Positions 14,221-46,060 of a stretch of 64,000 nucleotides of DNA are shown one piece after another. Under the pieces are notes generated by a model that ran no database searches, was not told where the DNA came from, and was given only the letters and a program-made list of their open reading frames with translations. The position numbers were made by a program, and so were the translations under genes. Each line of letters opens with the position of its first letter. The stretch's first letter is position 1. Origin of the DNA: Cladocopium goreaui (Eukaryota > Sar > Dinophyceae > Suessiales > Symbiodiniaceae); NCBI GenBank assembly GCA_947184155.2, contig CAMXCT020002674.1, forward strand, positions 1-64,000, read 5' to 3'.

Positions 14221-14292
14221 GGAAACCTTTCCCCGGAACCCGGCTGGGAACCCGGATCTGGCTGCTCCGACCTGCTCCGGAACCTTTACTAT

Positions 14293-14328
14293 GACTGAAG
14301 ACTCCAAGTTTACGCTGTTGGGGAAAAA
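14293..14328 (+). repeat. Conserved array-end motif, copy 4
   Basis: ACTGAAGACTCC followed by AAGTTTACGCTGTTGGGG, preceded by the CTGCTCCGACCTGCTCCGG leader also found before the 6909 copy. Confidence 0.75.
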
Positions 14329-14330
14329 CA

Positions 14331-24030: not shown

Positions 24031-24041
24031 CTAGCGAATTG

Positions 24042-25193: not shown

Positions 25194-25218
25194 TCGTTGT
25201 CATGGTCTTGGACTACCT

Positions 25219-27295: not shown

Positions 27296-27313
27296 GTCTT
27301 GATCACCCCCAAG

Positions 27314-28171
27314 TCATGCACTCCCCAGGTCCTTCTCCACCGGAGGATGCGTGCACGTACGTGAGGAATCAGCAGGGCCAAAAGTGCTCTTCCACTCTTC
27401 CGAGTCTATGCGAAGTGGACGTAGGTGTCGCAGAAGTTTCTGACGGTGACGCGTTGCCGTACCCAATGCTCCGATGTTGATGCATAACAACTGATTCTGC
27501 TTGGCTCTGCATAGCTCCACATCAGCTTCATAGTCTCTCAGAACACAAGTTCCATGACGCATGTCCTTCACAAGGCCTGGAGTGGCTTGGTTGCCAAGGC
27601 TCAGCAGTAAAGGAACAAAGCTATCATGGTCGAGCTCATATGAAGCAATGATGCCTGCCACATTCTTCAAGTCACTGCCAATGTCGATGGAAAATGGAAT
27701 TCGAAACAATCCATTTGCTTTCGTTGCATTGGCGCCTACTCCGTTGTAATTCTTTGTGGCCTTGCATGTTTCCATGCAGAACCCCATGGCTTCCAGCTTT
27801 TCTTGGGCGTTCAGTCTCCAGCTCCTTGAGTGACAAGTTGTATTACATCCTTCGTCCAGGATGGCCCAGATTCCTGGGTCTGTCACGATGTCAACTTCTC
27901 TGAGCTCTTTTGGAGAACCATAGATCGGCATCTGGAATCGTGGCTCCCAGTTATACCATTGATCTTCGTAGTGCTGGTACCATGGACTGTCGCGCCACCA
28001 GTCCTCGGAATACTCTTCGTCTGCCCATCGGTGAGCTTGTGACTGTGGTCCTTTCCATGAGAGAGACTCCAGCAATTCACTGACTGCCATCATACTGACT
28101 GGAACATGAGGTCTTGTCGCATCGACTACATCTTGCAACCTCTTGACCAACTCCTGGTCATCTGCCTGCAC
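27314..28171 (-). pseudogene. copia aspartic protease-like segment
   Basis: The likely active site is IWAILDEGCNTTCHS at residues 102-115 of this frame, where the usual D-T/S-G of retroviral-type proteases is D-E-G. Upstream is an aromatic, acidic stretch (EDWWRDSPWYQHYEDQWYN). Downstream hydrophobic strands fit a protease-like beta fold. The frame continues upstream without a start codon. The Cys-rich segment just before it is in another frame because of a 35-bp tandem duplication at about 28159-28229. The atypical triad residue leaves activity in doubt. Confidence 0.55.
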
Positions 28172-28686
28172 CTGTCTGGATATTGATCCTTGTCATCTGC
28201 CTGCACCTGTCTGGACAATTCATCTAAACAAGCAAGCACTTCACCCTTGAACAGTCTGACAGATTCTTGCCTGCAGGTCAGATTCGTTGCCACCTCTAAC
28301 GCGTCGTCCGAACTTCTTGCTATCGACTGACCTAACTTTTCTCTATCACGTCGATGTTCCTGTGGCATTTCACTTATGAACTCCTGACACTGAAGGCAAT
28401 AGATTCTAGACATGTTCTTGGATGAACCCCTCTTGTCAGTGATTTCATGTGGGCAAGTGTCGTAGTCGTAAAGCTTCTGTGTGTTCTTCCTCGTCTTCTC
28501 AGTGTGCCCACACTTCTTGCATGTCTTGACATTGTAGTATGCATTGGTCCCTCGTCTCGAGAACTCAACACACCCATCTGGACATCGCCTCACTTCTGGT
28601 GGACTCTGAACTGCTGCAGGTGGTATCCAATGTTCAGGATCCTTCACTGTCAGAATACCATTTCTCTCCTCCATACATGTCTTCAA
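28126..28686 (-). pseudogene. Cys-rich segment between gag and protease
   Basis: The frame carries paired Cys motifs: CPDGCVEFSRRG, then TCKKCGHTEKTR, then CPHEITDKRG and YCLQCQEFI. These look like two zinc ribbons. It runs toward the protease frame, with the reading phase switched by the 35-bp duplication at 28159-28229. Upstream it overlaps the end of the gag frame, again in a different phase. It is probably part of one gag-pol reading frame. Confidence 0.55.
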
Positions 28687-30652
28687 CCATGTCTGGAACC
28701 TTTGGAGATCTGGTGTTCTTGGATTCCCGTTGAATACTCATCTTGCAAACGGCATGTCCTTGAGGACTACATCTGCATAGGTCGAACCCCATCGGCAACC
28801 GTGGAATTCCCCGAACAGTACTAGCTTCTGACGGTGCCTCTTGTTCAACAGAATCTCGTCGACTAGTCTGTTCTGCGGGCCTATGCGCTGCATTTGAGGC
28901 TGAGCTGCCTTTTCCCCTTCCAAGGGATTGTCGGCTTGATGCAAGAGCCATCAAAGCAGTCGACTCTGCTCCTTCGTCATAGGAGAGTCCAACACTTGAG
29001 TCGTCTGTGGACGCCTTTCTGGCATGCAGAACCGTGCTCACAGCTAGGCTTGCTGTGCGGTTCTTGGGACATTCTCTGTCTCCGGCCCAATGGCCTTTCA
29101 TGCCACAAGCTTGGCATTTTGTCTTCGCCTTGAACTCTTGGAGTTTCTTCCTCCGGTCCTCCAGCGACAGACTGCCACCAAACTTGTCCTTGCTATAGCC
29201 CTTGCCATAGCTCTTGCCTTTGGCCTTGAATTTAAACTTACTTTTTCCTTTTGTGAAGCAGGGCGGCGTCTTCTTCTGTCTCTCCACCTTCGTTCTGCAG
29301 GTGTGACTCGAACAGTTCTTCATAATCCACGGAGTCTTCATATTCCCAGCCTTGTGCAGCTTCGTGGTCATAGGAACCATCGTGACTGCCCCGCTCATCT
29401 GACCAATCTGCCACATACGAATCAGCTCCTTGCCAATCATCTTCCCATCCGTCGTAACCGGAGGTGTGATCAGCACCGTAGTCGCACCAGCTCCACTTGA
29501 GGCTGTATGGTAGGACCGAATCTCCCCACCTTCACCTTCTTCTCCACGAAGTTTCTTCGCCTCTCTAACGAAGCTCTCTTCGGCCTCCTTCATGATGCGC
29601 AGTCTCAACTCCTCGACAGACTTCTCTGGGGACGGTTGAGACAACATCCCAATGGCCAAGGCCTGCACAGGACCTGCGCCATTCAGCGTCCCTTGGGCCT
29701 GCTCAGGACCCCCATGTAGAGCTCCTGCACCACGGGCCTGCCCAGGGCCTCCATGTAGAGCTCCAGCACCACAGGCCTGCACAGGGCCTCCATGTAGAGC
29801 TCCTGCGCCAAGGGCCTGCTCAAGGCCAGCACTACCGCAAGCAGCCTGCCCAGGGCTTGCACCAGAATGACCATGTCCAGCAACCCCATAGCCAGCAGGG
29901 CCAAACGTCACAGGTGCCCCTGCAAGAGGCGGCAAGGATTCTGGTCTTGCCACATCAGCGACCTGTTCCAGAACTGCAGCTCGCTGAACTCCAGCGCTCC
30001 AAAAGGCATTGACTCCAGGAGGCACTGCCATCACCTCAGCGCCACCTCGCTCTTGGCCAAACAGGCCAGTAGATGCCACCAGCAAGGACGTCCCATCACG
30101 GTACACGAACCCTTGTTCCCGGCCAGCATCACTAGAAAGGTTCCGAGCCAGCTCCAAACCAGCTCCAGCAGCGCTAGGTCCTCCTTGAAGCCCTCGTTCA
30201 GCTGCCACGGCAGGGCGGATGTCATCATCTTCGTCCAGCCTTCGTCGAAACACCGTCTGAGCTTCATCCTGCCCAGACTCATGAAACAGCGGAGCAAGAA
30301 GGCCATCAGGTCCTAGAGGTTCTGCATCAAGTTGGAGTGAGTTCACCTGCCCTTGTGGTCCTTCAGTTCCACCTTGTCCCCGACCTTCATCTCGTCGTGG
30401 CTCTGGCGTCGAAGCAGCCACGTCCCCCTCGGTCACCTTCAGTCGTCGGACCTCGGGCACTTGGGGAACTTCCAGCTTTGACCTCTTCTCCATCTCGATC
30501 AGCCTGTCTAGGCGCTGATCTGCCGTCTCTTGGTGCTGCCGGCGCCTCCGATCCATCACAGTCAAAGGAACCCCGCGCACCCAAGCCAGTGAAGGCTTGG
30601 GCTCATAACCTGCGAAAGGCAGGTGCAAAAGTCTGCCCTTTTCTTGAGCCAT
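28634..30652 (-). pseudogene. copia gag-like protein with zinc knuckle
   Basis: A 672-codon frame starting with ATG at 30652. The N-terminus is charged, followed by an acidic and glycine-rich region. A 13-residue repeat (GAGALHGGPVQAC type, three copies, 39 bp each, 29690-29830) comes next, then a basic Lys-rich tract (KSKFKFKAKGKSYGKG). The zinc knuckle is CQACGMKGHWAGDREC, spaced C-x2-C-x4-H-x6-C, with two more residues before the last Cys than the usual CCHC knuckle. The C-terminal part may be out of the true frame after about 28740. Its place at the 5' end of the element and the knuckle support a nucleocapsid role. No classical copia gag helices could be assigned with certainty. Confidence 0.6.
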
Positions 30653-30774
30653 GTGCAGTCAGAAATCCTTGTGCAGGGGCCATGCAATGAACGGTCGTCC
30701 AAAAAGCATGCCAGTCCTACAATAGACAGCACTTCTTGATTTGTGCGTGTCATTCTTTGAAAACGGCACCACAA

Positions 30775-31538
30775 AAAGAATTAAAAGATTTAAAAGAATT
30801 AAAAGATTTAAAAGAATTAAATATTTAAATCTTTTAAAGCTCTGGGGAATTAAAAGATTTAAAAGAATTAAATATTTAAATCTTGTAAATATTTTAAAGC
30901 TCTGGGGAATTAAAAGATTTAAAAGAATTAAATATTTAAATCTTTTAAATCTTTTAAATCTTTTAATTCCCCAAAGGACGTGGGATTCTGAGGACCTCTT
31001 GGGATTTAAATCTTTTAAATCTTTTAAAGCTCTGGTGAATTAAAAGATTTAAAAGAATTAAATATTTAAATCTTTTAAATTTTTTAAAGCTCTGGGGAAT
31101 TAAAAGATTTAAAAGATTTAAATCGTGAGCTGACCCTATTGTTGGAGGATTCCTGGAGACTTCAAAGATTTAAAAGAATTAAAAGATTTAAAAGAATTAG
31201 AAGATTTAAAAGAATTACATATTTAAACCTTTTAAATCTTTTAAAGCTCTGGGGAATTAAAAGATTTAAAAGAATTAAATATTTAAATCTTTTAAAGCTC
31301 TGGGGAATTAAAAGATTTAAAAGAATTAAATATTTAAATCTTTTAAATCTTTGAAATCTTTTAAATCTTTTAAATCTCCAAAGGACGTGGGATTCTGAGG
31401 ACCTCTTGGGATTTAAATCTTTTAAATCTTTTAAAGCTCTGGGGAATTAAAAGATTTAAAAGAATTAAATATTTAAATCGTTTAAATCTTTTAAAGCTCT
31501 GGGGAATTAAAAGATTTAAAAGAATTAAATATTTAAAT
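30775..31538. repeat. Palindromic AT-rich satellite, left part
   Basis: Monomers of about 60 bp contain AAAAGATTTAAAAG, a core AATTAAATATTTAAAT and CTTTTAAATCTTTT, so each monomer is nearly self-complementary, joined by AAAGCTCTGGGGAATT. Interspersed are a GGACGTGGGATTCTGAGG spacer and a GAGCTGACCCTATTGTTGG spacer. The array resumes at 41812 in the same phase after the inserted YR element. Confidence 0.9.
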
Positions 31539-31833
31539 GACTCAAGCCGAGCAAAGACGTGATATGGATCACTTTCAAACTTGATCAATGAATGCAACAG
31601 AGCAGTGGCCCACGCACCTTGAACTTTTTGGACACACTGCTCATGGCGTGGGGCGAGCAGTATCTTCGATCTGATTGATTTCTCGAAAATCTACAGAGCA
31701 GATGACAGAGCAAAAACTGATGTTCGTTCATACCAAGATCCTCATACCTGAGCAGCTAACGCTGACCTTTCACAGATCATGTCGAGCTGACGCAAAGGTT
31801 AGAGAACACACTAAGGCATGAACAAAACGACCC
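31539..31833 (-). repeat. YR element repeat B2 (outer)
   Basis: 295 bp beginning GACTCAAGCCGAGC on the plus strand. It matches B1 (32210-32499) except for a 5-bp indel (AGTAT present here near 31658). It forms one end of the element next to satellite DNA. Confidence 0.9.
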
Positions 31834-31976
31834 CTTCCGTCAGGCTGAATCAAAATTTCTGCAGTACGCTCATCAATCTGTGAACTCTTCACGAGAACTC
31901 CAGAAAAATTAGCAAGGGTGAGCGAGCAGCAGCAAGCCTCACCCTGTACATTTCGTACAGGGCGGGCTGGGTTGGG
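31834..31976 (-). other. Spacer between A2 and B2 with a perfect hairpin
   Basis: 143 bp not repeated elsewhere in the window. It contains CCCTGTAC (31942-31949), a 5-base loop and GTACAGGG (31955-31962), a perfect 8-bp stem lying 15 bp from A2. Position near the transcript end suggests a role in RNA end formation or priming; this is inference. Confidence 0.6.
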
Positions 31977-32209
31977 AGATTTCAGCCTGGGAGTGATCAG
32001 ATGAACTTGCGCCAAAATGGCACGAGAGTGCTGGCAGTTCCTCAGTGATCACCACGGGATGAACTTCACACAGTATCAAGAATATATATGAACATATATA
32101 TAAATAAAATAATAAATCGGATCAAAATCAGATTTCCACGATCAAGCTTGAACAAGCTCTTCAGAGTCACCTTCCTGTCCCAGACCTACCTAACCAAAGA
32201 CATGAAATC
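31977..32209 (-). repeat. YR element repeat A2 (inner)
   Basis: 233 bp that appears identical to A1 at 41579-41811. It contains an AT-rich stretch (GAATATATATGAACATATAT near 32090) that could serve promoter or terminator functions, and it directly abuts B1. Confidence 0.9.
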
Positions 32210-32499
32210 GACTCAAGCCGAGCAAAGACGTGATATGGATCACTTTCAAACTTGATCAATGAATGCAACAGAGCAGTGGCCCACGCACCTTGAACTTTTT
32301 GGACACACTGCTCATGGCGTGGGGCGAGCCTTCGATCTGATTGATTTCTCGAAAATCTACAGAGCAGATGACAGAGCAAAAACTGATGTTCGTTCATACC
32401 AAGATCCTCATACCTGAGCAGCTAACGCTGACCTTTCACAGATCATGTCGAGCTGACGCAAAGGTTAGAGAACACACTAAGGCATGAACAAAACGACCC
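32210..32499 (-). repeat. YR element repeat B1 (inner)
   Basis: 290 bp matching B2, adjoining A2 with no gap. The A2/B1 junction (GAAATC next to GACTC) would be the circle junction sequence in the YR integration model. Confidence 0.9.
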
Positions 32500-32513
32500 A
32501 GGCCCGAACATGC

Positions 32514-34688
32514 CTATTTCAAGGCCGACGGCCAGATCACTTGAACAGTCTGCCATCCTACCGCTTCGCCTAAATGGAGTTTGTTACGTGAAGGCCAATC
32601 AGCCGGGTTGGCGTCTGTTGAAATTCTATCGATGAACACTCTAACTCGCAGCTGAAAAGCTAGGTCCCAAAAGACCGAAATGATATGACAAAGATCTTCT
32701 TTGCTTGAGTATCCTTTGATCAAAGCAGACTCAACTGCTTCCGAGTCTATGAGCAACAAAATATCTGCCCCTCGGATCCGATCAGCGAAAGTTTCAAGCG
32801 CCAGAACAGCAGCGATCATTTCAACCGGAACAATCTGAGTGCTGCGGGTGAGCCACCTGTTTTTCACTTCCTCGGGCACCACAGCAGTGAACTGCTTGGG
32901 CCTGCGGGAGCGCCGATCAAACAGGACTGCACCAACACGATCAGGCAGCTTCTCTGCAGAGCGAGGATCCGGCGTGAATCCATCCGTGAAGATCATCCGA
33001 GCACTTTTCGCCGACCATGTCGATAGGCCGCGGAGGACCATGTTGAACAAGCTTCTTCCATTGCAATTGAGCCTCACGCAGGGGCGGGTCCAGCTTAACT
33101 CTGAGCCGATCGGGAAACGCAAATATTGCCTTTCCGAGATCACTCTGAGAAATGCACGGCCTACCTTGCCCCACAGCTGCGAGGCACCAAACATGAGCTT
33201 GCCCTTCAACTTCCCCGCTGAGCCCGGATCGAGTAAACCAGAAGCCAAGATCGCGTCGATTTCGCCAGAGAGCTCCTCTTTCCGATCGGCCTTGATCTCC
33301 AGTTGCATGAGCTCCAGGTTGTAGGTGACGCCTAGGATCGTAGGCGACCTGGATAGCTGCAGCTTCTTCTGATCAAACTGGGCACCTAGCCAGAAGTGAA
33401 CACTCTCGGCGATCTGCTTGGCACTGGCTACTGTCGAGGCCGGCTCGAAGCCGTACTTATCATCGTAAAAACTGAAAGCGAGCAAACCAAACAAAGAGAC
33501 CAAGATCTCGTTGATCGCAGCTGACCTTCTGTTATAGTTATATACCGCGGAGATCAGCCCAAAAGAATGACCGACCATGATGAAGAAATGCGGGGAGCCA
33601 ACCTCCGGATTCTTCAAGCAAATCACAGAGAACTTCCTCTGATCAGGTCGCACTGCCACTTGACGATAAGCTTTCCTCTCGTCAAGGACCCAGCCGCAGA
33701 GAGCTTCTTCTGGCTTTAACGAGCGAAGACGCCTCAGTGCAGCCACATTGGAGTCCGTTGACGGCAGCTGGAGCTTCTCAGAGATCTCCGTGACCTGGTT
33801 GATCATGTTGGTGGTGGCGCTGTCACATCCACGAACTTTGTTCTTCTGGACTACCTCAAACCTTTGTGTAGGGATCCAGTCTTCACACCCTGAGATCTTA
33901 GAAACTTCACTTTCGGACGCGAACGGTCCCAAACACGAACCTTCATTCACATCCTCAAGCGATGCCTCCCAAATCTTGATCAAATTCTGTATGACAGGTA
34001 CTGCGTGAACACGGTTGACAATCTTCCGCCTCAGATCCCAGGCCCGCTTCAATGCCTCCTCCACGGGGACGACCTTCTGAGTCTTCTCGTAGGGAGGCCA
34101 CCGACCGGTCGGGGTGATCAGGCCCACGATCGGGAAACCATGCAGAAGAAATTGAGGGAGCTCTAAGTCCACTGAGCGCACTTCACGAAGCATCTCGGCA
34201 TAGAGCTCAATGTGACAAACTTTCCCCAACTGCGGCGCCTCATCTGCAGGCGCACCGAGAAGTAGCCGGCAAGGAGCAGGATCAGGATGACGCCGTATCA
34301 GAGCCACTGAGCGGGGCAGCAATTCGCGAGCGCGCTGTTCCCAAAATTGCAACAGCTGGGCACGCTCGTGCAAGATAACAGATGCATCACGCTGCAGCCG
34401 GGCCAAAACTCTGCACGACTGATCATCCAGCGGCACGCTCTGAGTAAAAGGGTGTGGCACCTGGAGCGCAAACTCGATCGCCTGGCCCGGCTCAAGCTCA
34501 AACTCAAAAAGGGGTTTGGCGGCACCGCGCTTGAGCTGGTAGCCAGCCCACTGCACCTTCAGAGCTGTGGCCTCTTGACGATGACCAAGCCAAGGTTTAC
34601 CGGACTCAATGGGTGCGATCGCTTGCAGGTGTAGTGAGCGCAAATGACGGAGCGAAATGCGCCAGAGCATCTTGGTGGAGAGCCGCAA
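32514..34688 (-). CDS. Reverse transcriptase-RNase H of the YR element
   Basis: Open frame of 724 codons with no stop, stop at 32514 only 15 bp from B1. RT motifs include the motif A-like LDERKAYRQVAV (about residues 335-346) and the catalytic YDD in FSFYDDKYGF (about 408-410). RNase H has FTDGF (Asp about 569), PVEMIAAVLALE (Glu about 623), LLIDSEAVESAL (Asp about 648) and NPADWPSR (Asp about 697). The N(x)ADxPSR ending is typical of DIRS-type RNase H. The first in-frame codon is TTG, not ATG, and the frame directly overlaps the methyltransferase tail in another phase, so it is probably expressed as part of a longer polyprotein or by recoding. Catalytic residues appear intact. Confidence 0.8.
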   Translation of the reverse strand: MRLSTKMLWRISLRHLRSLHLQAIAPIESGKPWLGHRQEATALKVQWAGYQLKRGAAKPLFEFELEPGQAIEFALQVPHPFTQSVPLDDQSCRVLARLQRDASVILHERAQLLQFWEQRARELLPRSVALIRRHPDPAPCRLLLGAPADEAPQLGKVCHIELYAEMLREVRSVDLELPQFLLHGFPIVGLITPTGRWPPYEKTQKVVPVEEALKRAWDLRRKIVNRVHAVPVIQNLIKIWEASLEDVNEGSCLGPFASESEVSKISGCEDWIPTQRFEVVQKNKVRGCDSATTNMINQVTEISEKLQLPSTDSNVAALRRLRSLKPEEALCGWVLDERKAYRQVAVRPDQRKFSVICLKNPEVGSPHFFIMVGHSFGLISAVYNYNRRSAAINEILVSLFGLLAFSFYDDKYGFEPASTVASAKQIAESVHFWLGAQFDQKKLQLSRSPTILGVTYNLELMQLEIKADRKEELSGEIDAILASGLLDPGSAGKLKGKLMFGASQLWGKVGRAFLRVISERQYLRFPIGSELSWTRPCVRLNCNGRSLFNMVLRGLSTWSAKSARMIFTDGFTPDPRSAEKLPDRVGAVLFDRRSRRPKQFTAVVPEEVKNRWLTRSTQIVPVEMIAAVLALETFADRIRGADILLLIDSEAVESALIKGYSSKEDLCHIISVFWDLAFQLRVRVFIDRISTDANPADWPSRNKLHLGEAVGWQTVQVIWPSALK

Positions 34689-35372
34689 TCGCCTCTGCCA
34701 AAGTAGCGCACAAAGCCCATGGATAAACCTGAGCCGCTTTGGTCCGAAAGACCCAGTAGCCAGTTTTGGGATCCCGCATCTTGCCCTTGAGCTTCACATG
34801 GCGATGGCCTCCCGGGCAGCGCATCTGGACATCGTCGCGAGCAATTCAGAAGAGCATTGCAGCCGCGTCGGCTTCAACGACAGGGCTCCAAAAGCACATT
34901 GATCAAAGTCCAGCGCGAGAGCACGAGTATCAGCCACTAGTTGTTCCATGGTTGCGGTGACCCAAATAAGGCTAAGGAGAGGGTTTTCGATCGAGAAATC
35001 CCCTCCCAGTTGAAAAACGATCAAGCAAGCTTCAACCGTCCTAGAAAGAAAAATGTTACCAAGCAGGACTAAACACTGGTTGTCCTGCGACAGATCCGGC
35101 AACCCCATAGGCCTGAGCGCCGATCGCAACGGCGGCGGCCCACCGTCGAGCTTTCGAGCCGCAGTGAAAGTGTTGCACGGTGTCCCGCAGTGCAAGAAGA
35201 AGACCAAGCCTAAGGTGAGCACCTTCAGCACTGTAGACCACGTGATCATGTCAAGGAGATCCACTGGTTCTGGCACCAAAGGGGAGACCACTATGTCAAC
35301 CGGTGGCAAAATGGGGACACCACGCAGCTGAACAGCATCGGACAGACCCGCCGTGCCCGAAAAGAGCTCCAA
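34606..35372 (-). CDS. C5-methyltransferase-like domain of the YR element
   Basis: The frame from 35372 (TTG; no ATG) starts with ELFSGTAGLSDAV, matching motif I of cytosine-C5 methyltransferases (FxGxGG-like). It has a Pro-Cys motif HCGTPCNTFTAARK (residues 61-74, cf. PPCQ of motif IV) and FSIENP (126-131, cf. ENV of motif VI), then DFDQCAFGA and KPTRL. A frameshift near 34815 moves to a frame with RCPGGHRHVKLKG and a C-terminal helix region ending at 34606. DIRS elements are known to carry Dam-like adenine methyltransferases; the visible motifs here instead suggest a C5-type fold. Function could be DNA or RNA modification, or a degenerate nonenzymatic role. Confidence 0.6.
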
Positions 35373-35572
35373 AAAGTATAGGGCCCCCGAGCATGCAGCG
35401 CAGGGACACCGTCCAAGCCTTGGGACCAGACAAAGGAAGGCTGATCAGACTCTGCTGCCTCACTCACGCTCTGACTCACATCACGGCCAGAGCGGTCACT
35501 TGGGGCGGCTGGTCGATCGACCCAAGTGCCAGGTGGCCTAGCCTCCGAGGCCACCTGGCCCCCCTCGTCACT

Positions 35573-36887
35573 TCAGTGGTTGCCATGCCAAGGGTGGTCC
35601 TTGCCCCACTCGACACAGGCATGTTTCTGTCGGCAGCTGTCACCAAAACGGCAGCCGAGCGAGCAATTGTAGAAAGGGCAGCGCTTGCGCTGCCCCATAC
35701 TTGAAAGCAGTGATCTTCTGCCACTCCTTGGCTGGCACACGCTCATCGCGTGCTGGCCGAGCGGCGCCAGAGGCGGATTCCTTGGAGGAACTCTTGCTGA
35801 GAACCTCCTTGGCCTTCTGGAGCTGGGCTTTCTGCCGGGCCCTCCGAGCACGATTCTTCTTGCCTTTCGGGGAGGTCTTCACTGCCGAGCCCGAACGAGA
35901 CCGCGAGCGCTTCTTGGCCGGGGTGGAAGGAGCTGGGAGTTGGCCCGCTTGTTTGAACTTGTCGAGCTCGGCGCTGGAGCGAGCATCATTCCAGAGTTGC
36001 TTATGGTTCGTAAGCACCTCTAGCAGAGCCGCAGAAAACGAGCCAAAACTCTTGCGCTGATCAGAGCTGACTCTATGGACTTTCTTGCGGATGAGCGTGT
36101 CCGCGGTGAGCAGCAGGGCCAATCCTCGGTTTTCGTGGCGCCACTCCTCAAGCTCCGAGAGGTACTTGAGGGGGCCGGCTGCAAACGAGAACTCGCAAAT
36201 GTTCAGATATTCCAAGGTGATGAAGAACGCGTGCAACTTGTCCATGACTTGTGATTCAGAACTGGCAGAGGTGGGCTGATCGATCATCACTACCCGAAGC
36301 AGGTCTTCCGCGTTCTTTGTGAGGCCTGACTTCTGAGCGATCTGCTCATTCCGGGTGCGGATCTCGCCGACCTCATAGAAGTGCACAAAGCCATGCACCA
36401 AATAATCACGTTGAACACGTTCGACGAACTTTCTGTGGGGTTCCCGGTGCAAGGGAAGGACCACATCTGGGTGCCGAGCTACGAAAGTCTCTCTAAATTC
36501 GGCATGATCTTCGCCGGGAATCTCAGGAACTTTCGATGGATCCTCTTCCATTTTGGCCCGTCGAGCCGCAAAATGGTCCTGCATGGTCGAGCAGGTCTTC
36601 CAAACTGCCGCGAGAGCGGTCAACGCGAGCTCTTGTGAGGGCGCATCTGGTCCGAAAGATGCTGGATCTGGAATGATTGTCTTCAAAGTGGCCTTGACCC
36701 CCGCAATGTTGTCGCCCAGCATCGCGAAGGTCTCCACATTGAGCAATCCAGCGTCGGCCGCAGTCTTGCAGAGCTCATTGGATACTCGTTGGCGGCCCAA
36801 GATCTGTCTCAACGGCTGATCTGGGGTCTTATCCGCCGTATACACGGTCCGATCGACCATTATTGTCAAAAACTGATCGGGAGCCAA
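35573..36887 (-). CDS. Gag-like protein with CCCH zinc finger (one frameshift)
   Basis: The first frame (36887-35640, 415 codons) has a helical N-terminal domain (QILGRQRVSNELCKTAADAG and on), a central region, then a basic SR/K-rich tail (KKRSRSRSGSAVKTSPKGKK). At about 35693-35697, GGGG on the minus strand follows TAT. Skipping one G moves into the frame reading KRCPFYNCSLGCRFGDSCRQ then KH, a perfect C-x8-C-x5-C-x3-H finger, ending at 35573. Without the shift the finger is lost and the protein ends in a hydrophobic tail. The arrangement could be a programmed +1 shift or a one-base insertion. CCCH fingers bind RNA, fitting a nucleocapsid role. Confidence 0.65.
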
Positions 36888-36978
36888 ACATTACTGGCCA
36901 AACACAAAATCAAAATTTGAAAAACTCAAGCAAACATTCAAGCATCAACGACAGAATTAAATGCAGCAAAGGCGCAGC

Positions 36979-38919
36979 TCATGCATGACGGGAGCCCGGA
37001 CTCACGACGAAGCAGCGAGCAGCCACGTCAGGCCGAGCTTTGGCACAATGTTTGCACAGAACTGCTGCATCGGGCAATGCTGGCCCTACAGACGAGCATT
37101 CGTCCACAGGAAGGCGACCACACGCCAGTACTGTGGGATCCCCAAGTTGGGAGCAGTGGTGCCTATAGTCATGAGCTCGCCTGGCGCCCGAGGACTTGAC
37201 AAAGAACTGAACGTCCTCAAGAGCCGACGGATCCTCTCCATCAAGGATGGCCCCCTCTGGTGGCTCGATTGGGTGCTCGTTCTCGATCATGTCCTGGACG
37301 AGCTGTCTCACCATCTGAGCCGGAACGCTGGTACGATGCCGGGTGTACTTGAGCACCAAAGGACCAGGGTTCTTCCAGTTCGCCTGGAGGCCAATCTCCT
37401 CGGTGGAGCGACCAGCGTGGACTGCAGCGTCGAGCAACGTCACTCTTGCTGAATGAGCTGTCACTTCAGAGAGCCGGTCCAACACCGCGTTGATCTCCTC
37501 TTGATTGCCATTCATGAACTGGGTCACGGCAGTTTGGCCAAGCGTTCGCAGCCACTGCATTGATCGTTGGTAGGACGCCGGGGCGTCGCGAAACTCCTCA
37601 CGAGAGTTCAGGTCCCGCATCCAGTAGTCCCGATCAGGGTTCTCAAGGAGGAGCAGCTCCCAGCCTGTCTCGAGCCAAGCCGAATCCTTGAACCCTACGT
37701 GTGGCACTACGAACTTCGTGCCTCGCCTGCGCCTTTCCACTTTGGTCTGCCACGCAATCCCAAAAAGACCCTGATCAGTTAAAACAAGTTCTTGGGGTTT
37801 AACATGCAAAGCGTCATCAAACCTCAGAGAAGCAAAAACCATGCAGAGCCACCACCATGCAAAGAGCCTCGCTGCATCCGGTTCATTCGGATCCACCACA
37901 AAAAGCTCCAGGCAGGCGACTGCCGCAATTGGGATGGGAACGGCCTCTTTCAAGGTCGTGTTCCTCTTCTTGACGATCTCTGCCTGAACAGCCAGAAATG
38001 CGGGGTGAGCTAGATCAGGGCACTCGATCGCCAGTTTGGAGGTCACCCATTTAACTGAAGTTCTAAAGGACGGCAAAACAGAGGGGCCACATTCTTTATG
38101 ATCCAATGCAAGAGCGTATTTCAAGATCTTGTCATGGGTCAGTGGGAACACGGCCAACTGTTCGCTGGCTAGCCAATCTTCAAACCTTTCCCAGGCTGAA
38201 ATATGGGCAGCCATCGTCCTGGGAGCCCCTGATGACAACACGAGCTGTCTGAGCCGTGCCGTTTCGGCTGCTGACAACCCTTCACTATTGGTGGTGTCGA
38301 TCAACAGTTTGGAGAACTCCCCTGCACGTTCCCCTATGTCCTCGAGCTTGGCTGCCCACTTGCGCCTGGCCGCATTCTCTTGATCCAGAAGCGGAGTTGA
38401 AGTCACCTCCTCCTCCGGCTTCTTCAAGATCTTCCTAGGCGGTTGGGCAGGCTTCTGAGCAAGAGCACGGATAGCAAGAGAGCGTCTGGCTCTGGCAGCT
38501 TCAGAACTCAAAGCAACTGATAAAGGGTCACACATACCAAAACCAAGCTGTTGAGCCGTTGAAGCAAAGAAGGCTTTCTCGATCGACGAGGCCAGGCTCC
38601 AATACTGCTCTAGCATGAAACTGCTCTCCAGTAAAACATCCCTGATGCCTTCATCCAGTGTGGGAGCCCACTCATGGACCTTGACAACGAACTCCGACGC
38701 CACACGCACCTCCATGGCCGAGATGAGTGCCAGGTTGGCGAACGGCGAGGCGAGCACGGCCTGGGCGAAAGCATCAGAGAAAACAGGGAGGCATAAGATC
38801 TTGGATGCCCATCTCTCGTTCAATTGAGCCATCTTGCAACTGTTCGTGAACATGACATTATTTGAACAAATAAGACATGAGCAACATGAAACCCAACACC
38901 AAGGAACACCACCCCCCAA
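36979..38919 (-). CDS. Tyrosine recombinase (integrase) of the YR element
   Basis: A long open frame ending at 36979; the upstream-most codon is TTG and the first ATGs are at about residues 23 and 30. A core-binding-like helical region precedes the catalytic domain. Catalytic residues are Arg366 (SLRFDDAL), Lys393 (QTKVERR), His489 and Arg492 (TAHSARV), Trp515 (ANWKNPG) and the nucleophile Tyr525 (LKYTRHR). All six positions of the tyrosine recombinase set are present. The C-terminus adds a possible zinc-binding C-x7-C-x13-C-x2-C motif (Cys600, 608, 622, 625). It presumably integrates the circular DNA made from the element's RNA. It lies upstream of gag and RT, unlike the 3' position of YR in classical DIRS/Ngaro elements. 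Confidence 0.85.
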   Translation of the reverse strand: MGGGVPWCWVSCCSCLICSNNVMFTNSCKMAQLNERWASKILCLPVFSDAFAQAVLASPFANLALISAMEVRVASEFVVKVHEWAPTLDEGIRDVLLESSFMLEQYWSLASSIEKAFFASTAQQLGFGMCDPLSVALSSEAARARRSLAIRALAQKPAQPPRKILKKPEEEVTSTPLLDQENAARRKWAAKLEDIGERAGEFSKLLIDTTNSEGLSAAETARLRQLVLSSGAPRTMAAHISAWERFEDWLASEQLAVFPLTHDKILKYALALDHKECGPSVLPSFRTSVKWVTSKLAIECPDLAHPAFLAVQAEIVKKRNTTLKEAVPIPIAAVACLELFVVDPNEPDAARLFAWWWLCMVFASLRFDDALHVKPQELVLTDQGLFGIAWQTKVERRRRGTKFVVPHVGFKDSAWLETGWELLLLENPDRDYWMRDLNSREEFRDAPASYQRSMQWLRTLGQTAVTQFMNGNQEEINAVLDRLSEVTAHSARVTLLDAAVHAGRSTEEIGLQANWKNPGPLVLKYTRHRTSVPAQMVRQLVQDMIENEHPIEPPEGAILDGEDPSALEDVQFFVKSSGARRAHDYRHHCSQLGDPTVLACGRLPVDECSSVGPALPDAAVLCKHCAKARPDVAARCFVVSPGSRHA

Positions 38920-39610
38920 AAATAGTTGAGTGTGCCAACCTGGGTGAGGTCATGAGCAAATGCCTGATCAAATAACGTGCATGTATCATGAACACTTCAC
39001 TGAGCATCAATTGAAATAAAACTCAACGATCGTGTTAACCTCTTCACAAGGCAGCTCTTCCCGAGCACTCACACGCATGGACATGAACATGCAAGAAATG
39101 TGAACGTGTATCAGAAACTCTCAAGTGAACCTCAATTGAAATCAAATTCAACGATCGTTTAAACCTCTTCACGAGGCAGCTCTTCCCGAGCAAACACGCA
39201 TGTGGGCATGAACATGTCAAGATCATGAACATGTCAAACATTTCAGATCAAACCGAGCGAGATGACTGACCAGGGCAAACACCTAAACTAATCAGTCGCT
39301 CTCACTAACAGTCTGATCTGAGTTCCCACAACGACACTGCTGAGGGGCGTGCCTGAGCAGGGCCCCATTGCCCATGACTGATCGTCCCACAGAAAATAAA
39401 AGGGGAAATCAGTGAACACTCTGGCAACCCTCAGCAAATGTGAAAGCTCAGTGGAACAACAAATAAAACAAACCATCAAATTCCAAACATCACTGATCCA
39501 AATAATTTCCTTCTGAAATGCTGCAGCAGCTTTTCACAAACTGCGCAGTTTGGCGATCATGCCAATCTGAAGGAAAGCATCTCAAAAGATGGATTACAGA
39601 GCCGTCTGCC
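38920..39610 (-). other. Noncoding gap with 125-bp direct repeat in YR element
   Basis: No coding signal. Two tandem units start at 39007 and 39132 (period 125 bp), sharing TCAATTGAAAT, CAACGATCG, AACCTCTTCAC and GCAGCTCTTCCCGAGC. Position between ORF1 and the recombinase suggests a regulatory or transcript-boundary role; this is inference. Confidence 0.7.
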
Positions 39611-41494
39611 TCAGCAATCTGTGACCTCTTCCACAACAGGTGGGGGTCCATAGCTGACTGGCTGACCTGGCTGCACAGTGCTGGATCCAGCCACATAGCC
39701 GCTTGTGGCCTGGCTAACACGATCCAGGAAGAACTGCGGAGTGACCGCTGCTGCTGACATCTGTTCCCCTTGGCGAGCTTCCAAAGGTCTGCGATGAACA
39801 TGCACAGCGCCACCCTGCAGATTAGTGGCTGCCGGAGCTTCCCCTGGAGCCGTCAAGGCCACCTCGGATGGCACATTTGGAGCCACGGTCAATGATGGCG
39901 CCATAGGCCCTGCGAGAGCCAGCAAGCTTCCAGAGACCGAGGAAGCCGGCACCACCGATGGGCCACCTGTGACCGGCGGCAAAACAACCGTCTTCTGCTC
40001 GAGCTCCACATTGTGAGCCTGTATGGCCAGAGACTCTCGAGGGACGATCGCCTTCTCCGCCTTGAACAGAGGGGACTCGCAGGTGAAGTGCAAGTTGGAC
40101 GCATGAGACTCCACCGCAACTGCTCCAACTCTGGGTCCAGTCTCTTCCACGGAGCCAGCTTCGATCGATGCCGTCCAATGGGCGTGGATCCCCGCCAGCT
40201 GTGAAAGCTGCATGGTCTGATCCGGACCCTCGATCCTGGCATGGTGGTCACGGCACCAGTGAGCATTCTTCACGAGCGTCGGGCCTGACACACGTGAGAC
40301 AACCAGCCAAGTCGATGGGACCACCAGGGAACATGACACATCGACCTTGTCTCCAGATGACCTGAAGCGAAACTCCAAACGATCGGCATCCATCCCGATC
40401 GAGTCCGCAGATGAGATTGCAGTCACCCTCATCTCAAAGTGGCACAGTGGGAAATCAAGAGCCACCACTGTGCCTCCATCGCTGCATGCGTAGAGCCGCC
40501 CTCCAACCTCGAACGAGGTGGCAATGACTCTCCACCCTTGGAACACCGTGACAGCGACCGAAGGGATGAAGAGCATCTCATCCAATCGCGGGATCACCGA
40601 GTCGTTGATGTAATTCAACTGGACCGTCATGTCCTGGTCCGATCGGTAACCACGCAGCTCAAGGTGGAGCAGCAACTCACCTTCCACTTTGACCTTGACG
40701 TCGACCCATGTGGATCCATCATCTGTCATCATAGGCCATCTGAACGGTTGGAAGGCTGGGTGCGAGAGCACTTGCCCCGTAGGATAGTCCCACTTCGCGC
40801 AAGGGACTGTCCCATACGAGGTCATCGAGCCGACCAACACAAACTTGAACCCATCCAGAGTGCGAACGTAGAGCAGGTTGAAGTGATAGCCCGTGTTTGG
40901 AGATCTCACCAGCTGTCGATCAGACAGCACATTGATGCCGCTCTGAGCGTTCAGCAAGATCTCGTCCAGAAGCCAACCTTGGTAAGGAGACTGGATCCGC
41001 TTGTCTCTGCTGTCAATGACAAGCACCGATCGTTCATGCTCCTTTGCCCCCAATTGTTGAACGTAAGGGGGCAACTGGAAATTCTGAGCGTTGGCCGCTG
41101 GCATCTGGCCCCAACGAATGCCGCGATGCCCCTTCTTCCGAGCTTTGGCATTCTGTGAGGCGATCTTCTCAGCCTGCTTCTAAGCACTGCCCAAGAGCTG
41201 CTTTGCCGCCTGGACAGCTGGAGCCGCTTGTGGTGGAGCCGCTTTTGGCAGATCTGCCTCCCATCCATCTTGCGGAGGCATATCTGTCTCTGACTCCTCC
41301 TCCTCTTGGCCAGCTGGAGCGCTCTCTGGGATCACCTTCTTCTCAAAACCTTTGGGTGGCGGCTTTGGAGCAGGGTACTGGATCCTTGCAGGCTGAGCTC
41401 CCCCCTCTTGAACAACACTCCACGATGCTGCTGAGCCTGTCGCACTTGCAGAGTCATCCGGGCTGATCCACTCTGCAGCACGAGAGGATGCCAT
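39611..41494 (-). CDS. YR element ORF1, unidentified, with in-frame amber codon
   Basis: One reading frame from ATG at 41494 to the stop at 39611 is interrupted by a single TAG at about 41180-41182, after LGSA and before KQAEKIASQNA. The N-terminal 104 codons are Pro/Ala-rich and acidic. The distal 497 codons are rich in predicted beta strands (FKFVLVGSMTSYG, TWVDVKVKVEGELLLHLEL, ADRLEFRFRSSGDKVDV) and end in a Pro/Ser/Val-rich tail. No known family was recognised. A beta-rich structural or capsid-like protein is one possibility. With the terminal A repeats identical, the TAG may be a readthrough site and not decay. Confidence 0.6.
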
Positions 41495-41578
41495 GGCTTG
41501 CTGGCGAGACTGAGCAGATGGGAACGTCGATCGAGGATAACCAGGCCCTTATGCACAAACACCGAGAGGCACAAGAAA

Positions 41579-41811
41579 AGATTTCAGCCTGGGAGTGATC
41601 AGATGAACTTGCGCCAAAATGGCACGAGAGTGCTGGCAGTTCCTCAGTGATCACCACGGGATGAACTTCACACAGTATCAAGAATATATATGAACATATA
41701 TATAAATAAAATAATAAATCGGATCAAAATCAGATTTCCACGATCAAGCTTGAACAAGCTCTTCAGAGTCACCTTCCTGTCCCAGACCTACCTAACCAAA
41801 GACATGAAATC
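41579..41811 (-). repeat. YR element repeat A1 (outer)
   Basis: 233 bp that appears identical to A2 (31977-32209). It forms the 5' end of the element on the minus strand and borders satellite DNA exactly at 41811/41812. Confidence 0.9.
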
Positions 41812-44800
41812 CTTTTAAATCTTTGAAATCTTTTGAATCTTTTAAATCTTTTAAATCCCCAAAGGACGTGGGATTCTGAGGACCTCTTGGGATTTAAATC
41901 TTTTAAATCTTTTAAAGCTCTGGGGAATTCAAAGATTTAAAAGAATTAAATATCTAAATCGTTTAAATCTTTTAAAGCTCTGGGGAAATAAAAGATTTAA
42001 AAGATTTAAATCGTGAGCTGACCCTATTGTTGGAGGATTCCTGGAGACTTCAAAGATTTAAAAGAATTAAAAGATTTAAAAGAATTAAAAGATTTAAAAG
42101 AATTAAATATTTAAATCTTTTAAATCTTTTAAAGCTCTGGGGAATTAAAAGATTTAAAAAAATTAAATATTTAAATCTTTTAAATCTTTTAAATCCCCAA
42201 AGGACGTGGGATTCTGAGGACCTCTTGGGATTTAAATCTTTTAAATCTTTTAAAGCTCTGGGGAATTAAAAAAATTAAAAGAATTAAAGATTTAAATCTT
42301 TTAAATCTTTTAAAGCTCTGGGGAATTAAAAGATTTAAAAGATTTAAATCGTGAGCTGACCCTATTGTTGGAGGATTCCTGGAGACTTCAAAGATTTAAA
42401 AGAATTAAAAGAATTAAAAGATTTAAAAGAATTAAATATTTAAATCTTTCAAATCTTTTAAAGCTCTGGGGAATTAAAAGATTTAAAAGAACTAAATATT
42501 TAAATCTTTTAAATCTTTCAAATCTTTCAAATCTTTTAAACCTTTTAAATCCCCAAAGGATGTGGGATTCTGAGGACCTCTTGGGATTTAAATCTTTTAA
42601 ATCTTTTAAAGCTCTGGGGAATTCAAAGATTTAAAAGAATTAGATATTTAAATCTTTTAAATCTTTTAAAGCTCTGGGGAATTAAAAGATTTAAAAGATT
42701 TAAATCGTGAGCTGACCCTATTGTTGGAGGATTCCTGGAGACTTCAAAGATTTAAAAGAATTAAAAGATTTAAAAGAATTAAAAGATTTAAAAGAATTAG
42801 ATATTTAAATCTTTTAAATCTTTTAAAGCTCTGGGGAATTAAAAGATTTAAAAGAATTAAATATTTAAATCTTTCAAATCTTTTAAAGCTCTGGGGTATT
42901 AAAAGATTTAAAAGAATTAAATATTTAAATCTTTCAAATCTTTTAAAGCTCTGGGGAATTAAAAGATTTAAAAGAATTAAATATGTAATTTTTAAAATCT
43001 TTTAAATCTTTTAAATCTTTTAAATCTTTTAAAACTTTTAAATCTTTTAAATCCCCAAAGGACGCGGGATTCTGAGGACCTCTTGGGATTTAAATCTTTT
43101 AAATCTTTGAAAGCTCTGGGGAATTAAAAGATTTAAAAGAATTAAATATTTAAATCTTTTAAAGCTCTGGGGAATTAAAAGATTTAAAAGAATTCAATAT
43201 TTAAATCTTTTAAATCTTTTAAATCTTTTAAATCGGTTTAATCTTTTAAATCCCCAAAGGAAGTGGGATTCTGAGGACCTCTTGGGATTTAAATCTTTTA
43301 AATCTTTGAAAGCTCTGGGGAATTAAAAGATTTAAAAGAATTAAATATTTAAATCTTTTAAATCTTTTAAAGCTCTGGGGAATTAAAAGATTTAAAAGAT
43401 TTAAATCGTGAGCTGACCCTATTGTTGGAGGATTCCTGGAGACTCCAAAGATTTCAAAGATTTAAAATATTTAAAAGAATTAAAAGATTTAAGAATTAAA
43501 TATTTAAATCTTTTAAATCTTTTAAAGCTCTGGGGAATTAAAAGATTTAAAAGAATTAAATATTTAAATCTTTTAAATCTTTTAAAGCTCTGGGGAATTA
43601 AAAGATTTAAAAGAATTAAATATTTAAATCTTTTAAATCTTTTAAAGCTCTGAGGAATTAAAAGATTTAAAAGAATTAAATATTTAAATCTTTTAAATCT
43701 TTTAAAGCTCTGGGGAATTAAAAGATTTAAAAGAATTAAATATTTAGATCTTTTAAATCTTTTAAAACTCTGGGGAATTAAAAGATTTAAAAGAATTGAA
43801 TATTTAAATCTTTTAAATCTTTTAAATCTTTTAAATCGGTTTAATCTTTTAAATCCCCAAAGGAAGTGGGATTCTGAGGACCTCTTGGGATTTAAATCTT
43901 TTAAATCTTTTAAAGCTCTGGGGAATTAAAAGATTTAAAAGAATTAAATATTTAAATCTTTTAAATCTTTTAAAGCTCTGGGGAATTAAAAGATTTAAAA
44001 GATTTAAATCGTGAGCTTTGGAGGATTCCTGGAGACTTCAAAGATTTAAAAGATTTAAAAGAATTAAAAGATTTAAAGGAACTAAATATTTAAATCTTTT
44101 AAATCGTTTAAAGCTCTGGGGAATTAAAAGATTTAAAAGAATTAAATATTTAAATCTTTTAAATCTTTTAAAGCTCTGGGGAATTAAAAGATTTAAAAGA
44201 ATTAAATATTTAAATCTTTTAAATCTTTAAATATTTAAATCTTTTAAATCTTTTAAAGCTCTGGGGAATTAAAAGATTTAAAAGAATTAAATATTTAAAT
44301 CTTTTAAATCTTTTAAATCCCCAAAGGACGTGGGATTCTGAGGACCTCTTGGGATTTAAATCTTTTAAATCTTTTAAAGCTCTGGGGAATTAAAAAATTT
44401 AAAAGAATTAGATATTTAAATCTTTTAAATCTTTTAAAGCTCTGGGGAATTAAAAGATTTAAAAGATTTAAATCGTGAGCTGACCCTATTGTTGGAGGAT
44501 TCCTGGAGACTTCAAAGATTTAAAAGAATTAACAGATTTAAAAGAATTAAAAGATTTAAAAGAATTAAATATTTAAATCTTTCAAATCTTTTAAAGCTCT
44601 GGGGAATTAAAAGATTTAAAAGAACTAAATATTTAAATCTTTTAAATCTTTCAAATCTTTTAAATCTTTTAAATCCCCAAAGGATGTGGGATTCTGAGGA
44701 CCTCTTGGGATTTAAATCTTTTAAATCCTTTAAAGCTCTGGGGAATTCAAAGATTTAAAAGAATTAGATATTTAAATCTTTTAAATCTTTTAAAGCTCTG

Positions 44801-46060
44801 GGGAATTAAAAGATTTAAAAGATTTAAATCGTGAGCTGACCCTATTGTTGGAGGATTCCTGGAGACTTCAAAGATTTAAAAGATTTAAAAGAATTAAAAG
44901 ATTTAAAAGAATTAAATATTTAAATCTTTTAAATCTTTTAAAGCTCTGAGGAATTAAAAGATTTAAAAGAATCAAATATTTAAATCTTTCAAATTTTTTA
45001 AAGCTCTGAGGAATTAAAAGATTTAAAAGAATTAAATATTTAAATCTTTTAAATCTTTTAAATCTTTTAATTCTTTTAAATATTTTGAATCCCCAAAGGA
45101 CGTGAGATTCTGGGGACTCTTGGGATTTAAATCTTTTAAATCTTTGAAAGCTCTGGAGAATTAAAAGATTTAAAAGAATTAAATATTTAAATCTTTTAAA
45201 TCTTTTAAAGCTCTGGGGAATTAAAAGATTTAAAAGAATTAAATGTTTAAATCTTTTAAATCGTTTAAAGCTCTGAGGAATTAAAAGATTTAAAAGAATT
45301 AAATATTTAAATCTTTTAAATCTTTTGAATCTTTTAAATCTTTTAAATCTTTTAAATCATTTTAAATCCCCAAAGGACGTGAGATTCTGGGGACCTCTTG
45401 GGATTTAAATCTTTTAAATCTTTTAAAGCTCTGGGGAATTAAAAGATTTAAAAGAATTAAATATTTAAATCTTTTAAATCTTTTAAAGCTCTGGGGAATT
45501 AAAAGATTTAAAAGATTTAAATCGTGAGCTTTGGAGGATTCCTGGAGACTTCAAAGATTTAAAAGATTTAAAAGAATTAAAAGATTTAAAGGAACTAAAT
45601 ATTTAAATCTTTTAAATCTTTTAAAGCTCTGGGGAATTCAAAGATTTAAAAGAATTAAATATTTAAATCTTTTAAATCGTTTAAAGCTCTGGGGAATTAA
45701 AAGATTTAAAAGAATTAAATATTTAAATCTTTTTAAATCTTTTAAAGCTCTGGGGAATTAAAAGATTTAAAAGAATTAAATATTTAAATCGTTTAAATCT
45801 TTTAAAGCTCGGGAATTAAAAGATTTAAAAAGAATTAAATATTTAAATCTTTTAAATCTTTTAAAGCTCTGGGGAATTAAAAGAGTTAAAAGAATTAAAT
45901 CGTTTAAATCTTTTAAATCTGTTAAATCCCCAAAGGACGTGGGATTCTGAGGACCTCGGGATTTAAATCTTTTAAATCTTTTAAAGCTCTGGGGAATTAA
46001 AAGATTTAAAAGAATTAAATATTTAAATCTTTCAAATCTGTCAAAGCTCTGGTGATTTAA
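41812..46060. repeat. Palindromic AT-rich satellite, right part
   Basis: About 4.2 kb of the ~60-bp self-complementary monomer described for 30775-31538, organised in higher-order units of roughly 350 bp marked by GAGCTGACCCTATTGTTGG (near 42015, 42355, 42708, 43408, 44475 and 44830, with shortened versions near 44014 and 45525). The GGGATTCTGAGGACCTCTTG spacer recurs once per unit. Plus-strand frames such as RFKRIKYLNLLNLLKLWG are repeat artefacts. Confidence 0.9.

What the first reader, a model, noticed from the sequence alone, without database searches (positions are those of the whole stretch)
31539..41811. Complete tyrosine-recombinase retrotransposon with split direct repeats and a non-classical gene order
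The ends form A1 - interior - B1A2 - spacer - B2 with B1 and A2 exactly adjacent. The interior encodes a tyrosine recombinase with all six catalytic positions and a DIRS-like RT-RNase H. Known DIRS/PAT/Ngaro elements usually run gag, RT-RH, (MT), YR. Here the order is ORF1, YR, gag with CCCH finger, MT, RT-RH, so the recombinase is upstream. Together with the unidentified ORF1 this could define a new dinoflagellate YR lineage.
Basis: partly seen in the sequence, partly recalled or inferred. Interest (0 to 1): 0.92.

Follow-up and report, generated by a model that had tools for sequence, protein, structure and literature searches.

The report
Dinoflagellate recombinase retrotransposon with reordered genes
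This is a copy of a large family of "jumping genes" in a dinoflagellate-type alga that copy themselves through RNA but appear to insert with a recombinase; the unusual gene order is real and shared by the sister copies examined, and the family also seems to read through a stop codon and to choose AT-rich landing sites by a simple rule.

Summary
On the minus strand 41811-31539 is A1 - coding interior - B1A2 - spacer - B2: A1=A2 (233/233), B1=B2 apart from one 5-nt indel, B1|A2 abutting. Joined flanks match intact satellite without a gap, so no target duplication. The order is not one rearranged copy: YR-gag-MT-RT-RH recurs in 10 of 10 sister copies examined in the same 1.17-Gb genome, with ORF1 ahead in 9 and both repeat pairs in 9. 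YR upstream of RT has precedents the finding omits: VIPER/TATE (PMC6681497), and Symbiodinium DIRS-like elements with A-coding-B-A-B ends and 'shuffled' integrase/Pol order (PMC5890265). The window copy is structurally complete but not intact: gag-pol changes frame six times against relatives and ORF1 has a TAG. Three features not in the finding: gag and pol share one frame split by a single UGA (30 of 30 copies with the gag-end motif, of 32 examined); insertions favour N6-ATAT (19 of 31, background 2%); a hairpin lies in the A2-B2 spacer (30 of 30 loci). New variant of a known kind.

The parts
41579..41811 (-). A1, left terminal repeat (5' end of element)
   Evidence: identical to 31977-32209 over 233 nt
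39611..41545 (-). ORF1, orphan protein (about 650 aa in close relatives), interrupted here by TAG at 41180-41182
   Evidence: 97% identity to P0242 over 41545-39614; 189 homologues at E<=1e-3; no Pfam, PDB or confident fold match
38982..39231 (-). two 125-nt tandem repeats in the ORF1-YR intergenic region
   Evidence: family D7, 78%
36979..38949 (-). tyrosine recombinase (YR) ORF, open frame
   Evidence: catalytic R, K, H, R, W, Y; profile match to XerD family E 5e-4, probability 31%, controls 0.14 or worse
35640..36890 (-). gag ORF (N-terminal part), frame changes before the CCCH finger
   Evidence: aligns with gag parts of P0012, P0066, P0098
35573..35695 (-). CCCH zinc finger and conserved gag C-terminus ..HPWHGNH, ending in TGA 35573-35575
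   Evidence: zf-CCCH_4 E 0.0023, below curated cut-off; frame 3 match; TGA
34794..35378 (-). MT domain (cytosine-5-methyltransferase-like motifs: PC at 35175-35177, EN at 34986-34988); its end continues in another frame to about 34.6 kb
   Evidence: PHROG DNA methyltransferase hits in 13 of 31 family members
32514..34793 (-). reverse transcriptase and RNase H (YDD 33459-33464)
32210..32499 (-). B1, internal copy of right terminal repeat
   Evidence: identical to B2 except a 5-nt indel
31977..32209 (-). A2, internal copy of left terminal repeat, abutting B1
31834..31976 (-). spacer with conserved hairpin (stem 31935-31968)
   Evidence: z -2.95 here; 10 of 10 copies z -2.3 to -5.7; CCC[GA]CCC arm in 30 of 30 loci
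31539..31833 (-). B2, right terminal repeat (3' end of element), ends GAGTC
31529..31538 (-). target site: N6 (ATTTAA) followed by ATAT at +7 after the element end
   Evidence: 19 of 31 insertions have ATAT at +7
30727..31538 (.). TTTAAA-type satellite, downstream flank
   Evidence: (D1-D3)
41812..44000 (.). same satellite, upstream flank
   Evidence: (D1-D3)

Best explanation
A recently inserted copy, with broken frames, of a multi-copy dinoflagellate YR retrotransposon family with split direct repeats. Proposed cycle: one transcript carries ORF1, YR and gag-UGA-pol; pol (MT-RT-RH) is made as a Gag-Pol fusion when ribosomes pass the single UGA; RT copies the RNA and the internal B1A2 segment supplies the sequence that joins the ends into a circle with a B|A junction; YR recombines that junction with AT-rich chromosomal DNA at an N6-ATAT box. 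The six bases between the exchange point and the ATAT box need not match, so the element keeps its own six at the left end and the target keeps its own at the right, with no duplication. Shown from sequence: ends, gene order across copies, seamless empty site for the window copy, gag-UGA-pol layout, target box, spacer hairpin. Inferred: single transcript, read-through, circle, strand exchange, roles of ORF1, MT and hairpin.
For: Repeats exact and abutting; empty site in satellite (joined 90+90 nt, best match 180 nt, 0 gaps, 95.6%); YR-gag-MT-RT-RH in 10 of 10 sister copies, ORF1 ahead in 9, both repeat pairs in 9; B pair in 30 of 30 RT loci, mean identity 99.5%; seven fused gene models in the same order, none reversed among the 360 listed proteins; RT, YR and ORF1 hits share contig lengths (24, 27, 16 against about 0.1 in a shifted control) and co-diverge (Mantel r 0.72, 0.79, 0.58; 0 of 9999 shuffles). 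YR residues conserved, XerD profile match. UGA after the gag-end motif in 30 of 30 copies with it, of 32 examined; no stop in 58 codons behind it in frame 0 in 28 of 28, in the other frames in 2 and 0. ATAT at +7 in 19 of 31, mean 2.2% and maximum 9.7% at offsets 31-300; element bases 1-6 match the own target no better than shuffles.
Against: As read, the window copy cannot make an intact Gag-Pol, though relatives with open pol frames of 1018-1029 aa exist. No RNA, protein or circle data. Behind the UGA dN/dS is clearly below 1 in only 1 of 10 pairs, above 1 in 4 (two of them the same comparison) and uninformative in 4. UGA is also the usual stop of YR (7 of 8) and ORF1 (4 of 4), so its fixity alone is weak. 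In 8 of 30 copies a Met lies within 43 codons of the UGA. The hairpin behind the UGA is strong in 5 of 14 representatives only. ATAT also stands at +5 and +9 in 26% and 23% of insertions, so part of the +7 signal comes from (AT)n flanks. Left flanks known for 10 copies only. The YR-XerD match has a probability of 31% and is lost for the catalytic slice alone.
Confidence: 0.8

Rival explanations
1. The gene order is an accident of one rearranged or nested copy.
For: The window copy has frame breaks and sits in a satellite array.
Against: YR-gag-MT-RT-RH in 10 of 10 copies whose RT is 51-92% identical to the window's, ORF1 ahead in 9; fused gene models; EukProt gene numbers put ORF1 next to YR on s1365, s1306 and s1247, and ORF1 (g7) near RT (g4) on s2614 (taking equal scaffold names as one scaffold).
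Confidence: 0.01
2. It is a member of the already published SymbioDIRS-Dnmt3 elements, or of their DNMT-less relatives in the same paper, so only a new member of a known family.
For: [quoted passage not shown] That paper notes that Symbiodinium DIRS RTs align poorly with Pfam.
Against: No hit to PF00145 in 31 Pol proteins and none to PF00589 in 33 YR proteins at E<=1, whereas the published domains were named by Pfam. 'gag', 'readthrough' and 'target site' do not occur in the main text of the paper; the figure with the exact order was not held.
Confidence: 0.4
3. Pol is not made by UGA read-through but from its own mRNA (for example by spliced-leader trans-splicing, recalled as general in dinoflagellates) or from an internal start or promoter.
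For: Candida Tca2 has gag-UGA-pol, but its junction did not direct read-through in yeast and held a promoter (PMC2194720, abstract). In 8 of 30 copies a Met lies 1-43 codons behind the UGA.
Against: Same frame with exactly one stop in 8 of 10 fetched copies; a PPPG.W-like motif within about 20 codons of the UGA in most subfamilies; first Met 79 or more codons on in 22 of 30 copies, 8 of which are one near-identical group.
Confidence: 0.3
4. Target choice is only for AT-rich or (AT)n DNA, not for an ATAT box at a fixed distance.
For: 3' flanks are AT-rich (mean GC 0.30 in 60 nt against 0.50 in the fetched stretches); ATAT at +5 in 26% and +9 in 23%.
Against: The peak at +7 is 61%, others within +15 at most 26%, far offsets 2%; the element's own A end mostly carries AT[AG]T at the same +7.
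Confidence: 0.1

Closest known systems
SymbioDIRS-Dnmt3 elements of Symbiodinium (PMC5890265; passages and section 6 read)
   Same: dinoflagellate host, A-coding-B-A-B repeats, methyltransferase within Pol, YR on its own ORF, two structures with shuffled integrase/Pol order
   Different: methyltransferase there is Pfam-detectable Dnmt3, here only C5-like motifs; gag, read-through and target site not mentioned there; which order goes with which structure was not visible
VIPER / TATE of kinetoplastids (PMC6681497; passages and section 7 read)
   Same: A1...B1-A2-B2 split direct repeats; YR before the RT/RH ORF; weak domain scores for YR
   Different: gag-like ORF first and three ORFs, no MT named; here ORF1 and YR precede gag, and gag-MT-RT-RH is one frame behind a UGA
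Ngaro (PMC8547959, PMC4157794, PMC3783388; passages read)
   Same: A1-ORFs-B1A2B2 ends, YR, RT-RH
   Different: no MT; gag, pol, YR order; here MT present and YR upstream
PAT / Kangaroo / TOC elements (PMC4157794, PMC3266345; passages read)
   Same: split direct repeats, MT, zinc finger in gag of PAT1
   Different: MT of the DIRS class is Dam-like (PMC5890265) and precedes YR; Kangaroo YR is inverted; here MT is N-terminal to RT with C5 motifs and the finger is CCCH
Large DIRS1-type element of Ectocarpus (PMC3537659; passages read)
   Same: over 9 kb, direct terminal repeats, extra fast-diverging 5' ORFs
   Different: RT-RNase H lies upstream of the YR ORF; inactive adenine methylase
Candida Tca2 gag-UGA-pol (PMC2194720; abstract read)
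   Same: gag and pol split by UGA with possible RNA structure behind it
   Different: LTR retrotransposon; only the expression layout compares

Membership tests
YR retrotransposons (order DIRS) | tyrosine recombinase in place of DDE integrase | tested here: met
   catalytic R,K,H,R,W,Y in 111-118 of 120; XerD profile match E 5e-4, probability 31%, controls 0.14 or worse
YR retrotransposons (order DIRS) | reverse transcriptase with RNase H | tested here: met
YR retrotransposons (order DIRS) | no target-site duplication | tested here: met
   seamless empty site of the window copy; no junction repeat of 3 nt or more in 8 of 10 copies, 4 nt inside (AT)n in 2
DIRS1-like | inverted terminal repeats with internal complementary region | tested here: not met
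   ends are direct A/B repeats; best inverted match 20 nt at 90%
DIRS1-like | gag first, MT C-terminal to RNase H | tested here: not met
   YR upstream of gag and MT N-terminal to RT in 10 of 10 copies, ORF1 ahead in 9
PAT group | split direct repeats | tested here: met
PAT group | adenine-type MT domain | tested here: inconclusive
   G.PC and EN[PV] in 30 of 31 members, [DNS]PP[YFW] in 1 of 31; C5 profile match weak (E 0.006 vs 0.017 for the reversed profile); PHROG DNA methyltransferase 13 of 31
Ngaro | no MT domain, YR downstream of RT-RH | tested here: not met
   MT-like domain present; YR upstream
VIPER/TATE | three ORFs gag, YR, RT/RH without MT, A1...B1A2B2 ends | tested here: not met
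   ends agree, but gag lies downstream of YR and an MT-like domain is present
VIPER/TATE | RT/YR phylogenetic clustering | not testable with these tools
   no named reference RT or YR sequences of these elements were obtainable
SymbioDIRS-Dnmt3 | A-coding-B-A-B repeats, YR ORF separate from Pol | tested here: met
   against the text of PMC5890265
SymbioDIRS-Dnmt3 | Dnmt3-type domain (PF00145) in Pol | tested here: inconclusive
   0 of 31 members hit PF00145 at E<=1; C5-like motifs present
SymbioDIRS-Dnmt3 | RT clustering with the published elements | not testable with these tools
   published sequences not obtainable; a PF00145 search of the own genome did not complete

The most novel reading that the evidence does not exclude
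A dinoflagellate lineage of YR retrotransposons that makes pol by passing an in-frame UGA behind gag, carries an orphan ORF1 and the recombinase upstream of gag-pol, and integrates by exchange next to a six-base spacer that need not match, at N6-ATAT boxes. This is unlike the matched 3-bp junction described for DIRS1 (PMC3266345) and closer to the heterologous coupling sequences of Tn916-type integrases (recalled). A conserved hairpin whose upper stem varies with pairing kept marks the A2-B2 spacer near the 3' end.
Probability: 0.45. Interest if true: 0.75.

Novelty: new variant of a known kind. Interest (0 to 1): 0.6.

Why it matters
How YR retrotransposons form circles and choose targets is little known. 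This family has at least 30 copies with near-identical repeat pairs in one genome, each preserving its B|A junction and target flank, so junction and target rules can be read directly: here an ATAT box favoured at a fixed +7 and no sign of matching in the six bases before it. The gene order suggests that YR and gag-pol move as modules, and a gag-UGA-pol layout would add a recoding strategy to this order of elements. ORF1, with 189 homologues found and no known fold match, is an open target.

Tried and rejected

Rows dropped: searches listed the best 120 of 307, 139 and 189 hits; one search used the 113, 114 and 113 of these that I entered with a contig length. One search used 10 copies picked to span 51-92% RT identity out of 65 match rows. 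One search used the 30 loci returned. One search left out L184 (end motif not at the BLAST end) and added C465 and C5937, giving 31; one search used 29 of these (without L173 and C465, A2 start read uncertainly). One search found the gag motif in 30 of 32 (not L171, L186). One search used 28 loci and 10 chosen pairs; one search used 14 representatives; one search used 10 copies, two of them nearly identical. One search ignored strand and was replaced. A formal covariation count of the hairpin was not made (alignment does not register the loops).

Full report
WHAT IS THERE. The element lies on the minus strand, 41811 to 31539 (10,273 nt). Read 5' to 3' it is A1 (41811-41579), interior, B1 (32499-32210), A2 (32209-31977), a 143-nt spacer, B2 (31833-31539). 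A1 and A2 are identical over 233 nt. B1 and B2 are identical except for one 5-nt indel. B1 and A2 abut. There is no matching inverted terminal repeat. Both flanks are the same AT-rich satellite. Joining the two flanks (90 nt from each side) gives a sequence that 11 satellite stretches of the window match over its whole length, the best two without gaps at 95.6% and 94.4%, others with gaps. So insertion neither duplicated nor deleted target bases.

STATE OF THIS COPY. The ends are fresh but the frames are not: against relatives, gag-pol changes frame six times (about 35.69, 35.4-35.5, 34.84, 34.61, 33.09 and 33.00 kb) and ORF1 has one TAG. Sequencing error and decay cannot be told apart here. 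Relatives with open pol frames of 1018-1029 aa exist in the same genome.

IS THE ORDER ONE COPY'S ACCIDENT? No. The genome (1.166 Gb, 6202 contigs) gave 65 RT match rows. I fetched 10 copies spanning 51-92% RT identity. All 10 have YR-gag-MT-RT in that order; ORF1 leads in 9 (in C465 the fetched upstream stretch is tandem repeat); both repeat pairs are found in 9, the B pair alone in C465. All 30 loci returned by the search have the B pair (mean 99.5%, minimum 98.0%), and an A-type start follows B1, with small irregularities in L173 and L184. Independent support: among 360 listed proteins from three searches, seven fused gene models show ORF1-YR (Cladocopium goreaui P0218, Durusdinium trenchii P0236), gag-CCCH-MT-RT (P0012, P0066, P0098), gag-RT (P0078) and ORF1-RT (P0118), none reversed. 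The three proteins share contig lengths far beyond a shifted control (24, 27 and 16 pairs against about 0.1; all three on 10) and diverge together.

GAG-UGA-POL. In 8 of 10 fetched copies gag and pol are in one frame separated by exactly one stop codon; in the other two (C2635, C5948) a frame is broken nearby. The gag end ..HPWHGNH or a close variant was found in 30 of 32 copies examined, and the next codon is TGA in all 30, while pol's own stop is TAG 20, TGA 6, TAA 3 of 29. The frame behind the TGA has no stop for 58 codons in 28 of 28 copies, the other two frames in 2 and 0, and most subfamilies carry a PPPG.W-like motif within about 20 codons. The first Met behind the TGA is 79 or more codons on, beyond the start of MT, in 22 of 30 copies (8 of them one near-identical group) and 1-43 codons on in 8 of 30. 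Read-through is the simplest reading. Against it: UGA is common at YR and ORF1 ends too (7 of 8, 4 of 4); dN/dS behind the UGA is clearly low in 1 of 10 pairs only; the hairpin behind the UGA is strong in 5 of 14 representatives; and in Candida Tca2 a similar layout did not direct read-through in yeast (PMC2194720, abstract).

TARGET RULE. Element ends are conserved: B mostly ends GAGTC, A mostly begins G-N5 with AT[AG]T at +7. In 31 insertions ATAT occurs exactly at +7 behind the element end in 19; at offsets 31-300 the mean is 2.2% and the maximum 9.7%; at +5 and +9 it is 26% and 23%, which reflects (AT)n flanks. The window copy fits (GAGTC|ATTTAA|ATATTT). Each element's own first six bases match its target's first six no better than shuffled pairs; positions 7, 8 and 10 agree in 20, 23 and 21 of 29, in shuffled pairs equally, because element and target share one consensus. 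There is no junction repeat in 8 of 10 copies and one of 4 nt within (AT)n in two. This suggests recombination at one edge of a six-base heterologous spacer next to a shared ATAT arm. DIRS1 by contrast is described as using an identical 3-bp sequence (PMC3266345, passage).

SPACER HAIRPIN. Between A2 and B2 all 10 fetched or window copies examined fold a stem near the start of the spacer (z -2.3 to -5.7; two copies are nearly identical). A CCC[GA]CCC left arm is present in 30 of 30 loci (15 distinct sequences), against 10 occurrences in 106,572 nt of the rest of those loci; upper-stem bases change while pairing is kept. A formal covariation count was not made. A role in 3'-end formation, packaging or circle formation is inference.

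PRIOR WORK. PMC5890265 (passages and section 6) describes SymbioDIRS-Dnmt3 with A-coding-B-A-B ends and two structures with shuffled integrase and Pol order; gag, readthrough and target site do not occur in its main text. PMC6681497 (passages and section 7) gives VIPER/TATE with split direct repeats and RT as the third ORF after Gag-like and YR. PMC3266345, PMC4157794, PMC8547959, PMC3537659 and PMC6338049 were seen as passages. So a recombinase upstream of RT is not new; its place upstream of gag, the single-frame gag-UGA-MT-RT-RH, the target box and the hairpin were not found in the searches made.

VERDICT. A real, conserved, probably recently active family; new variant of a known kind.

Noticed in passing
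window 60984-63998 (-) and 22774-30658 (-): Two further retroelement-like coding regions: the first reads as a Copia-type pol (recalled motifs), the second has weak CCHC-knuckle hits in its first ORF.
   Followed up: no
window 30727-31538 and 41812-46000: TTTAAA-type satellite with 9/60-nt periodicity and several inverted segments; host of the insertion.
   Followed up: partly
window 10852-14467 and 5060-7383: Long stretches open in several frames on both strands, from repeats giving GSQARFPGT / LGTLLGNLF-like peptides.
   Followed up: no
window 46669-48969 (-): 766-aa open frame with a GKTRAGKSNLL P-loop, perhaps a GTPase-like gene (motif recalled).
   Followed up: no
P0288, P0357: NCBI names 'Tristetraprolin' and 'Membrane steroid-binding protein 2' from Durusdinium trenchii fall on ORF1-family proteins; likely misnamed gene models.
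   Followed up: no
P0012 and P0066 at the gag end: Both database proteins show W where the genomic copies have the gag UGA; either TGG copies or a gene caller reading TGA as W.
   Followed up: no
L212-L213 (G000 C465 146300-159800): Copy whose upstream stretch is expanded tandem repeat instead of ORF1, with only the B repeat pair seen.
   Followed up: partly
window 32329-32330 vs 31659-31663: The only difference between B1 and B2 is a 5-nt indel; sequencing error or first change after insertion.
   Followed up: no
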